From Tubulanus polymorphus (taxonomy: Eukaryota; Nemertea; Palaeonemertea; Tubulaniformes; Tubulanidae): 64,000 bases of DNA. The stretch covers positions 12,901,962-12,965,961 of the forward strand of contig NC_134034.1 in NCBI RefSeq assembly GCF_964204645.1, given 5' to 3'. How positions within the stretch are numbered: the stretch's first letter is position 1; every line of letters starts with the position of its first letter. This document shows positions 39,701 through 45,700 of the stretch, in pieces. The notes under the pieces are model-generated. The model made no database searches. It had not been told where the DNA came from and worked only from the letters and a program-made list of their open reading frames with translations. A program made the position numbers and the translations under genes.

Positions 39701-42700
39701 CAGGTGTGGTGACCGGTGACCAGTCAGGTGTGGTGGCCGGTGACCAGTCAGGTGTGGTGGCCGGTGACCAGTCAGGTGTAGTGACCGGTGACCAGTCAGG
39801 TGTGGTGGACGGGTCTTTGTTAAGGCTGGTCTTTTAAAATCGGCCCCTTCACTGCATGAATACCTCAATGAAAAACAGCATGGCAACCAATAGAATCTTG
39901 AATTCCATCAGTGTCTAGTTTTATCAAACACGTAACACGTGACTGGAACAGGCGTATTGAGTTATTGATTTTACATTAGATGCTACAAAAAAGCGGCGCC
40001 GCTGCAGAATAAGACACTCATTTTACATAATCTAATTATTCGGCGGGTTAGAAATAAGAGAGAGAGACGAGCCACTCGATCTTAGAGATCTAAATCTACT
40101 TCAGTTGTTTCCTTTTCTTTCTTAATTCTTTTCTTTCTAGATCGAAGACGAAGAAGAGGCTTTCTCCGATCGATCCAGGTAAGGTCTCGTCGTGCAGACG
40201 ATACGCATCCCCGATATTAAACGCCATCCGCGCAGACACGATTTTTACATCGAAAAATCGTTAAAATCACGGTCAAAATCTTCTATACGGACATTAAACA
40301 ATTTCTGTTCACTAAGTATCCGCTAAAAATACCATAGTCTGCTATCCGCGGTGAGAGTCGTATCGTCTCCGTATTCTAACCTTGGACAACTACGATTTAC
40401 AGCAGAACACTTTAGAAAACAAGGTCCTAGTTTTCAGAAAATGACTATCGTAAAAGTCGTTTAGTATTGAACTATGAAACGATAAAATACGGCCTGTCTC
40501 AGGTAAAGCCGAATGTTCCGTTTCTCATATTCTAAAATGTATACAGTTAAAGTCCGTCATAAGTCGGCCATCCAATACCACTGCTCTCTTTTTTAAATCT
40601 TAAAATAGGGATTGTCCCTGTTATTCATTTGGTTGGTAAATTTCGTTTGAATTTTTTGATTGAGTGTCCCTTACAGACCCACCACACCTGCCGGGAGCGA
40701 AACAGGGAGAATGATTTTTGAAATCGGAAATCGAAGTTCTCTTGCTCCCTAAACGCCAGCATTTTTCACGGAACAGATTTGCTCAATCCAACTCAAATTC
40801 ATTGAAAATATTACCACGTATTCGTTAACGCTGTCACAGTCGTGTTATAACGCCATATTTTTCATCGGTCTCAACAACTGCGCCGTTATAAAGGACTTTA
40901 ACTGTATATTGAATTTCGTAATTTACAGATATAAAGCATCGTTTTGGTGGCAGTTCTATGCTGTTTTCTGGCGCTCATGGGTCGGTACTTACCGCGACGT
41001 TTACGTGTTCAATACAAGACTTATACAAACTATTGTAAGTAACATTTCGATATAACGATATAGTGTCAGAATAATTTCAATATTTCATATGTCGAGAAAA
41101 TATTCTTATTTTGTAAACGAGTTTAAAAGCTTGGCATGTGACGTCATCCGATGACATAGCACATCACGTGGCCTATGAACCATATAGATGTAGATTTAAA
41201 CAAACATGGCGGCCTACACAACCCCCTCCCCCTCAGAGGGGCGTGGACTCACTGGGTCTCCTGCTAGGCGAGCACGTAATAGAATAGAGAATGGTTTATT
41301 TCTCTCTAACCAAACATTGGTATAAAGAGGTTACAAGAATTTATACAATTAACCCATCTAGTAGCGCCCTCTATGTGAATATCCGCTTGAATAAAGACGC
41401 CCCCTGGTGGTGTATTATGTAGATCGTAGCTGTAATGGTTGGGTCAATGTTTTGGCAGTTGGATAAGACTGAGTTTGCCGGTATCACCAGCACTAACGGA
41501 GCGCTGTTCTTTACTCTTACATATAATACGTTATGGAGAGTATTCGCTACTGTTACAGTGAGTTCACCGTGGTTACCGTTTCTATAGTAACTACGTTCTA
41601 TACTAACCCGCTACCATCGACAGACGTAAACTCAAAAATAGCGCCACCTTTTAGGGAAATACGGCAGTTTGTTTATGATAAATTTTCCGAAATTGAATTG
41701 ATTTAATTTGATTTTTCTTTTTGAAATAATTTTTCGATGAATATTTTGACTGTAGGTCATGTCTATAATATTCGGTATTCTGTATTTGAGTAACGACGCG
41801 ACCTCTGGCGACGGAATCCTAGGTATCAATGGCGCTATTTTCTTTACGATCATATGGAATTCTACTCGCGTAGTAATGACGAATGTAACAGTGAGTGTCG
41901 GAACTATTCCGTCGTAGGCGGATAACGATGATTAATCGCGCATTGATCGAGTGAGGAAGCCGCTATCGATCAATACGCCCTCTATTATCAATCAGCGTAA
42001 TTAGGGGTATTCTGAATCACGTGATCTAGTCGCCATCTCCTGAGACTGGTGTCGCGGAATCAGATGCCTCAACGGCAGATTGACTGATTACATTGAAGAG
42101 TCACATCGGGGCAGCAGCTGACTTTTACCCTTCTATTGTAAGGGGGGGGGTCGTTCTATGACGCCGGTATAACAAGCTGTACGGGCGTGAATTCAAAATG
42201 TGAATCGATTGAAATATCTTTAGCAAATACAAGAAATTAAGTATTTGTGTTTATTTTGCGTTGCGACGATATTTTCAAAGTAAATATCCTACATCACGGA
42301 GCCTGCGTGTCAAGTAGTCTAGGGTACACCCTCGCGTGTTGGTTATTGGAGTGTATTTGTTTGAACCTTGTTTGAGCTTTGATGATTGAAAGTCGTGACC
42401 GCCGCTTCACTGAGAACCTCAGTATCTGATGACAAATAAGACACAAACGAACTAATATTCACAGCAGCCTACTATCATATTACTGTGACTTAAAGTCCGT
42501 ACATGATGCGATATAAATACATGTAATTATAAATAGCAAAAATGACGCAATTTCTTCACTTTGAAACAAGGCACTGTATCAGTAATACTTCGTAAGCAAC
42601 AAGATAATTTGAGCCGCAATGCGTGTCTCTCGTCGCCCGCATGCGCCTGACCGTTCAGTAAATCGATATATTCTATTTGGCGTGTATATAGGTGATATCT

Positions 42701-45700
42701 CTACTGGTGGGTGCTGTTTGGTTGGAAAGTAGCACCGTCCGCGACACAAACGGGGTCCTGTTTTACTATATCATTGCCGTATCGGGGCGTTACGTGTTTC
42801 AAACAGTTTCAGTGAGTGCGTTGTTGAGAACCTCACTAGCCGCAGCCCGCTTTCCGATAGCGAAATATATATAATTATGTATATTCAAAAGAATGAAAAT
42901 TAAATCACAATACGGAACTCAAATCAGGGGCAATACCTGTTAATTAGGGGTAGGGAGATCATCCTTAATCTCCCTCACTAGGTGGAGCCCGCGGGGGTCA
43001 GGATTCTTTATTTTGACTACTGGTCTTCAATAATTGAAAATGTTTAAATTCAAATTATGGTTTCTATGGATACAGGTAATATCGCTGGTTGTTGGATTGT
43101 TGTTTATGAGTGAAGGCGGTTCCAGTTTGAATGAAGTGGCCATTTTGAATATAAACGGTGCTTTGTTTTATATGGCTATATTTTCAACATTCCGCAATTT
43201 GATGGGAGTCATTTCAGTGAGTCGTCTGCGCGCGCACAACGCGATCACATGGCACCGAGATCACAAAAGTGATCGCATCCACCTTGTATAGGCTGTTCTA
43301 ATTTCGGTGGCGGAATATTATCAAAATTAATTAGACAATATCCGGGAGCCCGAGTGAAGTTTCCGAGTACACAGTATTAGTGCAAGTTTCAACTCCCCTC
43401 ATTGCCCGATCCACGCTCTGTTTCACCATACTCGTGAAACAGGTGATCGTGAGCTTGGTCGTAAGCGCCTGCGGCTACTACGACCGCAGCAGAAGTACAG
43501 ATGGCGCTAGCAGTCTCGATGTCAGTCCAGCAGCCGAAGAGATTGACCGGAACGATGATGTTTTTTTTTGTGATGGGATGGTATAATAGTAATACTAGAT
43601 TTTCGGAACACGCGTTTATGAAATTGTTTTGGCCGCTTGGCTTTTCGAGCTTTGAAGCTTCAAATGACAAAATAAGAGCCTCGGCATTTCACAGTTTTTA
43701 ATTCAGCGCGTTCTCTCTCCCTCTTTTATCCACGGAACAGTTAAGCGCTGTTGTGATCGGTATAAGCGCCTTCGGTGCCCAGATTTACTACGACCGCAGC
43801 GGAAGTATAGATGGCGCTAGTAGTAGTCTAGATGTCAGTCCAGCCGTTACTAAGACGTTGACCGGAATGATGATGTATTTCGTCATCAATATGACCTGGG
43901 AGAACATGATTTGGATCCTAGATGTATGAACAACACATTTACCTCGGCTCGTTCGCGAGCAATTTCCCCGCTTGGCTTTTGAGCTTTTTTGAGCTTCCAA
44001 CACGGCATTCTTAATATTCACATTTTGAATTTACGTCTGTTGCGCATGCGCGATTCGGCTTGAACGGTGTTAAAATTTGAATAATGATTATATCCACCGA
44101 ACTCGATAGATGGCGCCACACGTTTGACGGTTTACATTCATTCCGCTTCTTTCTGAAGCTCATGTTTTATTTACAGTTTTGATTTTTCAAAAAAAGAAAA
44201 ATGAAAATGTCCTACTTTTTCGTTACCAGATTGTGGCTATCTTAGCGGCAACGCTATATTACGGTCAGGACTCGTCGCAGGAAGACAGTATCATGAACAT
44301 AAATGGTTGTATGTTCTTTTTCCAAACGAACATGAGTTTCGCAAATCTGTACATGGTTCTACAAGTGAGTGGAGTGAATGTCATCCGTCAACTAGTATTA
44401 CCCCAGTCCCCACGCACATCCGTCGATTAGTGAACACGATTGTCAATAATACTGTGTACTCGGGCGGCTCCGGTCTTTGACTGTACTGGGCTGGCTCCGT
44501 ACTTTGATTGCACTGGAGTAGCTCCAGTGTTTGTAATTGAACTGGGCGGTCCGGTGTTTGAGATTGTACTCGGGCGGCTCCGATGTTTGATTTCGGGTAA
44601 ATTCAACGTTGATTTCTTAATCGCTATTTTGAATAATTTGAGGCTATGCTAAACACCTCCCACAACTCACCTAGAAAACTACCATATCCCGCGTAATATA
44701 ACCGATTAAACCGGGGTCAATTTCACACCAACCTGGATTCTAGTTGTTGTGATAATATTATCGAGAATGCTAACACATTTTCAATTATAGCAATTATTTT
44801 CAACAGTGAAATTGTACCCCCACACCCCTACGACAGTGAGCACGGACAGTGGATTGCGTTCTGTGAATTGGTAATTGCTCGAACGCAACATGATCAAAAC
44901 AAGATTCTCGATAATCATCAGAAATCAACGTAATATGTCGACCACGATTCCACTCGATAAACCGAGATATATCTTAATAAAGTGTGTCCAATTAATTGAT
45001 GGATTTATTTCGGAATAAAATTCACAGTTAAAGACACTCGAGATGTTAAACCAATGTCTCAGTAATTATCGAATGCATGGTCATCAGATTTCGAATTTTA
45101 AAACTAATATCGACCTCCTGGGGTTGCAGGAGTTATCTCAAAGTTCGATGACTCAATTAACAGTCGACACGTATAAAGGACATGATAATAGCTGTTATCT
45201 GATGGAGTTAACTCTTTTGAGAAACTGTGAAGAGGGTCCAGAATCAAGGACGAGCTATAGCTTGAAGAGCGAGCGGGTGGGGGGGAGGCGTTTGATTTGA
45301 GAAACTTTGTCCATATTGCAAATCGTCTTGCGTCTTATCTGGCATTGATTGAAGATAAAATCGGTTTTTAAATGATCTATTTTTCTAAAATGAAGTCCGA
45401 AGAAACGATTATTTACTGATTTAGATATAATCTATGATTTTAAAACGTTGATTTTAGACCAATATTGATTTTGCTCATGCGCCAAAACCGCCTACCATAA
45501 TATCATAAACAACTATATAATCAACAGTTATATTCGAATATATATTTACAACATTATTTAGAAATTAAGATCACACAAAAAGTTTATAATCATCTGTTGT
45601 GAAAAATAGATAAAAAAGAAAAACTGTTTCTAAAAATGCAAAATTGAAATGAAGATGAAAAAGAAGAATTTCAAATTATCGATTATTGAATAAATTATTA

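What the first reader, a model, noticed from the sequence alone, without database searches (positions are those of the whole stretch)
41423..44364. Tandem array of alternative TM1-loop-TM2 exons in a white-type ABCG transporter
Six open exons (41423, 41756, 42692, 43076, 43741, 44230) and one broken copy stand where ABCG genes need one exon. All begin and end in phase 0, five share the donor GTGAGT while most other introns here use GTAAGT, and all encode the same hairpin: half of TM1, extracellular loop, and TM2 opening with an NGxxF(F/Y) motif (five of six). Divergence is greatest in the loop, which ranges from about 6 to 25 residues. This is the signature of mutually exclusive splicing. In ABCG structures TM1, TM2 and TM5 line the substrate cavity, so one gene could give up to six transporter forms with different pocket and loop. 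Joint inclusion would also keep topology, since each cassette adds two membrane segments. I do not know of such an array described for an ABCG gene; insect ABCC genes have comparable alternative exons.
Basis: partly seen in the sequence, partly recalled or inferred. Interest (0 to 1): 0.93.

Follow-up and report, generated by a model that had tools for sequence, protein, structure and literature searches.

The report
Swappable pocket exons in ABCG pump
One gene for a membrane pump carries six interchangeable versions of the exon that builds much of its substrate pocket, so alternative splicing could give up to six pumps of different specificity from a single gene, although no transcripts have yet been seen.

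Summary
The array is real. An intact white-type ABCG half-transporter gene (17 constant exons, 33785-47727) has six open cassette exons where one is needed. Each sits between AG and GT, phase 0 on both sides, a multiple of three long; any one completes a 731-752 aa ORF. Each raises the PF01061 score over skipping (126.4 to 150.5-171.2 bits) and over one shuffle of itself by 24-36 bits. Cassettes are 10-36% identical, about as far apart as ABCG1 and ABCG2; no copy was found elsewhere in the 268-Mb genome and no array in four other ABCG loci. The cassette equals ABCG2 residues 404-446, with 9 of 16 reported cavity residues (PMC11957596). New: introns 1 and 2 are complementary to one intron-5 site that is their only other near match in the genome, and cassette 6 alone lies in a strong hairpin over its donor (z -5.0). 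This recalls docking/selector control of mutually exclusive exons, but a minority of genomic blocks pair as strongly. No transcript or orthologue could be examined, so mutual exclusion is inferred. Cassette 43741 is doubtful.

The parts
33785..41034 (+). Constant exons 1-10 (33785-34256, 35167-35215, 36330-36516, 37019-37090, 37249-37347, 37682-37920, 38085-38187, 38426-38524, 40141-40178, 40929-41034): N-terminus, nucleotide-binding domain, first half of TM1
   Evidence: open reading frame and splice phases; TIGR00955
41423..41557 (+). Cassette 1 (45 aa): second half of TM1, loop, TM2
   Evidence: PF01061 167.7 vs own shuffle 131.7 bits
41756..41890 (+). Cassette 2 (45 aa)
   Evidence: 166.9 vs 133.5 bits
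42692..42811 (+). Cassette 3 (40 aa, shortest loop)
   Evidence: 153.8 vs 130.0 bits
43076..43216 (+). Cassette 4 (47 aa)
   Evidence: 165.6 vs 132.3 bits
43741..43923 (+). Cassette 5 (61 aa): outlier with long loop, no NG motif, weak donor GTATGA; doubtful member
   Evidence: 150.5 vs 123.4 bits; missed by leave-one-out profile; U1 duplex -0.5 against -5.3 to -5.9 for the other five
44230..44364 (+). Cassette 6 (45 aa): best Pfam fit, carries the T435, N436 and F439 residues of human ABCG2
   Evidence: 171.2 vs 140.9 bits
43476..43565 (+). Partial broken duplicate of cassette 5, mainly its loop
   Evidence: 79 of 90 aligned bases identical to 43786-43880
45763..47727 (+). Constant exons 11-17 (45763-45855, 46053-46110, 46252-46329, 46676-46781, 47064-47164, 47386-47459, 47626-47727): rest of the membrane domain and stop
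44016..44042 (+). Candidate docking site in intron 5
   Evidence: pairs with introns 1 and 2 (0 of 300 shuffles each), intron 0 (2 of 300), weakly intron 3 (28 of 300) and intron 4 (49 of 300), not intron 6 (249 of 300); site chosen after seeing the data
41618..41637 (+). Candidate selector in intron 1
   Evidence: only other genome match at <=2 mismatches is 44023-44042 on the opposite strand; the reversed control pattern had 3 matches
42181..42205 (+). Candidate selector in intron 2
   Evidence: pairing; the 21-mer at 42186-42206 has as its only other genome match at <=2 mismatches 44015-44035 on the opposite strand; the reversed control pattern had 1 match
44124..44391 (+). Hairpin enclosing cassette 6 with its donor region in the stem (arms 44124-44160 and 44355-44391)
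   Evidence: fold z -5.04; the other five cassettes z -0.68 to 2.68 (120 shuffles each)
43362..43382 (+). Intron 4 segment pairing with 44444-44464 in intron 6
   Evidence: 0 of 300 shuffles; the partner overlaps the start of a minisatellite

Best explanation
A single ABCG half-transporter gene of the eye-pigment-precursor (white) class carries six tandem versions of the exon that encodes the second half of TM1, the first extracellular loop and TM2. The versions are spliced in one at a time, giving pumps with a shared ATPase and body but a different TM2 face, that is, different selector and clamp residues of the substrate cavity and a different loop. Shown: the array, intact frames, family membership, position in the pocket, divergence with retained membrane-segment character. 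Inferred: that each is used, that use is exclusive, that specificity differs. Proposed control (less certain, about 0.4): sequences behind cassettes 1 and 2 compete for one docking site in intron 5, looping out the cassettes between, while a hairpin masks the donor of cassette 6.
For: Complete gene with any one cassette. PF01061 rises from 126.4 (skip) to 150.5-171.2 and every cassette beats one shuffle of itself by 24-36 bits. Leave-one-out profiles recover 5 of 6. First and second codon positions differ less than in realigned codon-shuffles (0 of 200 and 1 of 200 as low). No copy of a cassette was found outside the array, and the array was not seen in four other ABCG loci. Cassette = ABCG2 404-446, with L405 and the eight listed TMH2 cavity residues (PMC11957596). 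Residue 436 is Y,W,A,F,N,N and 439 is L,T,G,F,W,F over the six. Complementarity to one intron 5 site: 0 of 160 shuffles, one other near match each in the genome. Cassette 6 hairpin z -5.0.
Against: No transcript evidence and no orthologue. All lengths are multiples of three and phase 0, so frame does not forbid double inclusion or skipping. All introns are GT-AG and the shortest internal one is 198 bp, so neither spliceosome type nor crowding enforces exclusion. Cassette 43741 is weak on donor, motif and leave-one-out. The codon contrast pos3-pos2 (0.229) is only 1.6 sd above realigned shuffles (0.166, sd 0.039). Cassette acceptors are not weaker than constant ones. Pairing: of 82 overlapping genomic blocks, 7 reach the two-intron score, 11 the number of paired introns, 17 the number of duplexes, 3 both first measures; in an earlier run 5, 2, 1 and 1 of 51 reached four measures. 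The reversed control patterns also had 1 and 3 genome matches. The main site precedes cassette 6, not the constant exon. Column variability is not confined to cavity positions.
Confidence: 0.76

Rival explanations
1. One cassette (44230, the best Pfam fit) is the working exon and the others are old duplicates that are decaying or only rarely spliced.
For: 44230 has the highest PF01061 score and ABCG2-like T435, N436 and F439; a decayed partial copy lies at 43476-43565; 43741 has a weak donor.
Against: At 34-51% nucleotide identity neutral copies would be open with a probability of about 0.14-0.18 each (substitutions only), yet six of six are open, differ in length by multiples of three, keep both splice sites, and score 24-36 bits over a shuffle.
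Confidence: 0.13
2. Two or more cassettes are included together, making larger proteins with extra membrane hairpins.
For: All cassettes are phase 0/0 and multiples of three; pairing of intron 1 or 2 with intron 5 would bring cassette 1 or 2 near cassette 6.
Against: A second cassette begins with only about 12 hydrophobic residues fused to the end of the previous TM2, so it has no complete extra TM1; ABCG1 and ABCG2 align with one such unit, as do three of four other ABCG loci here, one of them split over two exons and the fourth without a match; the hairpin would hide the donor of cassette 6.
Confidence: 0.06
3. About control only, and compatible with the best explanation: the cassettes are real alternatives but chosen by tissue-specific splicing factors, with little or no role for long-range RNA pairing; the complementary segments are by-products of tandem duplication.
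For: Pairing of this strength is seen in 7 of 82 genomic blocks; introns 4 and 6 have no clear partner for the main site; no comparative support.
Against: The intron 1 and 2 segments each have a single other near match in 268 Mb, the same intron 5 site on the opposite strand; 0 of 160 shuffles.
Confidence: 0.5

Closest known systems
Insect MRP1 and Dscam clusters of mutually exclusive exons with docking/selector RNA pairing (PMC6071210, passages seen)
   Same: Tandem homologous exons in one frame; competing intronic complementarity to one site; MRP1 is also an ABC exporter (recalled: an ABCC)
   Different: ABCC is a full transporter of another fold class (recalled); the docking sites described lie upstream of the variants in Dscam exon 6 or in the intron downstream of the cluster, here the main site lies before the last cassette; use is established there, not here
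NALCN channels with alternative exons 15a/15b and 31a/31b (PMC3557258, passages seen)
   Same: Alternative exons replace the residues that set selectivity in an otherwise constant membrane protein
   Different: Two versions per site, a channel, expression reported
Human ABCG2 and ABCG1 (solved structures)
   Same: Homologous over the membrane domain; the cassette aligns to ABCG2 404-446
   Different: One such segment in the protein
Eye pigment precursor transporters such as White (TIGR00955)
   Same: Above the curated score of that subfamily
   Different: No exon array known to me for them (recalled)

Membership tests
Eye-pigment-precursor ABCG half-transporter (TIGR00955) | Score above the curated cut-off over nearly the full profile | tested here: met
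   737.9 bits vs 736.35, profile 30-616 of 617, with cassette 44230 only
Eye-pigment-precursor ABCG half-transporter (TIGR00955) | NBD first, then one ABC2 membrane domain | tested here: met
   single TIGR00955 stretch 143-735 with ATPase matches at about 152-366; single PF01061 stretch with each cassette
Mutually exclusive exon cluster | Tandem homologous exons of matching phase at one site of the gene | tested here: met
   homology 5 of 6 by leave-one-out, 6 of 6 by Pfam gain over one shuffle
Mutually exclusive exon cluster | Transcripts hold one and only one of them | not testable with these tools
   no transcript data on hand
Mutually exclusive exon cluster | Conserved in relatives | not testable with these tools
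   no other animal genomes on hand; scans with one NBD exon gave 7 loci in records titled as bacteria and 2 viral contigs, not examined further
Docking/selector RNA-pairing cluster | Several selectors complementary to one site | tested here: inconclusive
   introns 1 and 2 strong, 0 fair, 3 and 4 weak, 6 none; 0 of 160 shuffles but 7 of 82 genomic blocks
Docking/selector RNA-pairing cluster | Docking site in the first or last intron of the cluster | tested here: not met
   the main site lies in intron 5, before cassette 6; a separate pair of introns 2 and 6 lies by the last acceptor

The most novel reading that the evidence does not exclude
One ABCG gene makes six pumps whose pockets differ by exchange of TM2 while the FF/FY push pair and the motor stay; since ABCG half-transporters work as dimers (recalled), co-expression would allow 21 pocket combinations from one locus, chosen by RNA structure with a docking site next to a self-masking last cassette. 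The array would be ancient, as its members are as far apart as ABCG1 and ABCG2.
Probability: 0.35. Interest if true: 0.88.

Novelty: new variant of a known kind. Interest (0 to 1): 0.74.

Why it matters
The substrate specificity of ABCG exporters has been probed largely by point mutants, as in the two ABCG2 papers cited. Here nature may offer six full replacements of the pocket-lining TM2 on one constant body, with N, Y, W, A or F at the ABCG2 N436 site, F, W, L, T or G at F439, and R, E, W or A at S440. Expressing the six isoforms would test directly whether this face sets specificity. It would also add ABCG to the ABC genes diversified by exon arrays.

Tried and rejected
One NBD exon was scanned against the prokaryote and viral collections; the hits are in records titled as bacteria and in viral contigs. 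Weak polypyrimidine tracts at cassette acceptors as a sign of regulation: not different from constant acceptors (0.63 vs 0.67, p 0.33). My first codon-position test used a null without realignment and overstated the contrast; one search corrects it. That the cassettes are remains of whole duplicated genes was dropped: the constant TM exons in the query match at one place each in this region. A second BAMBI-like gene at 6514-7032 minus, suspected by eye, was not supported by Pfam. The search with ABCG1 and ABCG2 alone as profile ranks five cassettes first, but only weakly (E 0.007-0.08), and 43741 is not among the rows I printed.
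Full report
What is there. The window lies in a genome of 267.8 Mb in 77 contigs (C10:12901962-12965961). A complete ABCG half-transporter gene runs on the + strand from an assumed start at 33785 to 47727. Ten constant exons precede the array and seven follow. With any one of the six cassettes the gene gives a single ORF of 731-752 aa, and 691 aa without any. 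With cassette 44230 the protein passes the curated cut-off of the eye-pigment-precursor transporter family, TIGR00955 (737.9 vs 736.35 bits). In the Protein Data Bank its membrane domain is nearest ABCG1 (97.6 bits) and ABCG2 (83.7 bits).

The cassettes. Lengths are 135, 135, 120, 141, 183 and 135 bases, all phase 0 on both sides. Five donors are GTGAGT and one is GTATGA; among 16 constant donors GTGAGT occurs once and GTAAGT six times. A profile finds six and no more in the window. In the genome, five cassettes searched singly have no match up to E 10 outside this array; the first was searched inside a longer query, whose only match outside this gene, in C6, is to a later membrane segment. 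These searches score only the best candidates. In 10-kb stretches of other ABCG loci the cassette profile finds one equivalent exon in L036 (ABCG1-like), one in L037 and two half exons in L038 (ABCG2-like), and no convincing match in L035. L037 holds NBD matches on both strands, and I did not map whole genes there. No array was seen in any of them.

Are they under selection? The skip form scores 126.4 bits on PF01061; the cassettes bring it to 167.7, 166.9, 153.8, 165.6, 150.5 and 171.2. One shuffle of each cassette gives 131.7, 133.5, 130.0, 132.3, 123.4 and 140.9, so each real one gains 24-36 bits. Profiles built from the other five plus ABCG1 and ABCG2 find 5 of 6 (E 5e-10 to 0.0014); 43741 is missed (E 12). 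Differences at codon positions 1, 2 and 3 are 0.55, 0.47 and 0.70. Of 200 codon-shuffled and realigned sets none has so low a position 1 and one so low a position 2, but the position 3 minus 2 contrast is only 1.6 sd above the shuffles. Neutral copies at this divergence would be open with a probability of about 0.14-0.18 each, counting substitutions only. Together this speaks against decaying copies, least firmly for 43741.

Age. Cassettes are 10-36% identical to each other. The same segment of this genome's ABCG1-like and ABCG2-like genes is 71% and 50% identical to the human proteins, and human ABCG1 and ABCG2 are 27% identical there. The array is therefore old or its members diverged fast.

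Where it sits in the pump. By the alignment the cassette spans ABCG2 V404-E446. A 2025 study (PMC11957596, passages seen) lists as shaping the central cavity Q398, V401, T402, L405 in TMH1; F431, F432, T435, N436, Q437, F439, S440, V442 in TMH2; and T542, I543, V546, M549 in TMH5. Nine of these 16 fall in the cassette. It calls T435 and N436 selector residues and F439, F432, F431 a clamp-push-seal arm. PMC10439158 (passages seen) reports that alanine at N436, T434, T435 or Q437 leaves hydrophobic substrates transported but impairs hydrophilic ones to varying extents. In the six cassettes site 431 is F in five and M in one, 432 is F or Y, 436 is Y, W, A, F, N, N, 439 is L, T, G, F, W, F, and 440 is W, R, R, R, E, A; site 438 is always S or T. 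Non-cavity columns vary as much, so this is no proof of pocket-directed diversification.

Possible control. One intron 5 site (44016-44042) is complementary to 42181-42205 in intron 2 and 41618-41637 in intron 1 (0 of 300 shuffles each), to intron 0 (2 of 300), weakly to intron 3 (28 of 300) and intron 4 (49 of 300), and not to intron 6 (249 of 300); the site was chosen after seeing the data. A test over all sites without that choice: the best sums over two, three and five introns each exceed all 160 shuffles. Genome scans allowing two mismatches find, for a 21-mer of the intron 2 segment and for the intron 1 segment, only itself and the intron 5 site on the other strand, so they are not dispersed repeats; the reversed control patterns had 1 and 3 matches, so a single stray match is not rare, but its position is. 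Against this, blocks of the same geometry from the window and ten loci reach the observed values at times. In one search, of 51 low-repeat blocks (of 95), 5, 2, 1 and 1 reach the best single, two-, three- and five-intron scores. In one search, of 82 low-repeat blocks (of 149), 7 reach the two-intron score, 17 the count of strong duplexes, 11 the count of paired introns, and 3 both the first and the last; under a stricter filter the numbers are 4, 8, 3 and 0 of 63. Blocks overlap, so these are rough. Cassette 6 alone is closed in a strong hairpin whose stem takes in its donor region (z -5.04; the others -0.68 to 2.68). Two more pairs, intron 4 43362-43382 with intron 6 44444-44464 and intron 2 42204-42222 with intron 6 45734-45752 next to the last acceptor, beat all 300 shuffles, again after being picked. 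Described docking sites lie upstream of the variants in Dscam exon 6 or in the intron downstream of the cluster (PMC6071210, passages). Here the main site precedes the last cassette, so looping would exclude cassettes 2-5 or 3-5, and the hairpin would have to exclude cassette 6. This is a proposal.

Prior work. Searches for ABCG with mutually exclusive exons and related terms gave no title or abstract start describing such an array in an ABCG gene; one search listed 15 of 18 papers and 12 of 21, and I opened only the four papers cited. The library is open-access only. A mutually exclusive cluster in an ABC gene is known in insects (MRP1, named in PMC6071210), and alternative exons that change selectivity are known in NALCN (PMC3557258, passages). 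Hence: new variant of a known kind.

Verdict.

Noticed in passing
29582-31811: BAMBI-type gene on the + strand upstream (PF06211 67.2 bits, PF19337 54.9 bits).
   Followed up: partly
726-1888: Exons of an RNA polymerase second-largest subunit (PF00562 at 726-950 and 1367-1888).
   Followed up: no
37951-38089: The acceptor of constant exon 7 (38085) lies in a minisatellite whose units resemble TTTCTAGGAATG, the acceptor junction itself.
   Followed up: no
42494-42636: Dispersed repeat of about 140 bases in intron 2, listed at 37 other genome places at 77-80% identity (only 40 of 123 candidates scored).
   Followed up: no
41278-41353: Another dispersed repeat just before cassette 1, listed at three other places, up to 94% identity.
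   Followed up: no
44455-44592: Minisatellite (unit about 27 bases) behind cassette 6, overlapping the intron 6 pairing arm.
   Followed up: no
36598-36859: Uninterrupted (AT)131 in an intron of the gene.
   Followed up: no
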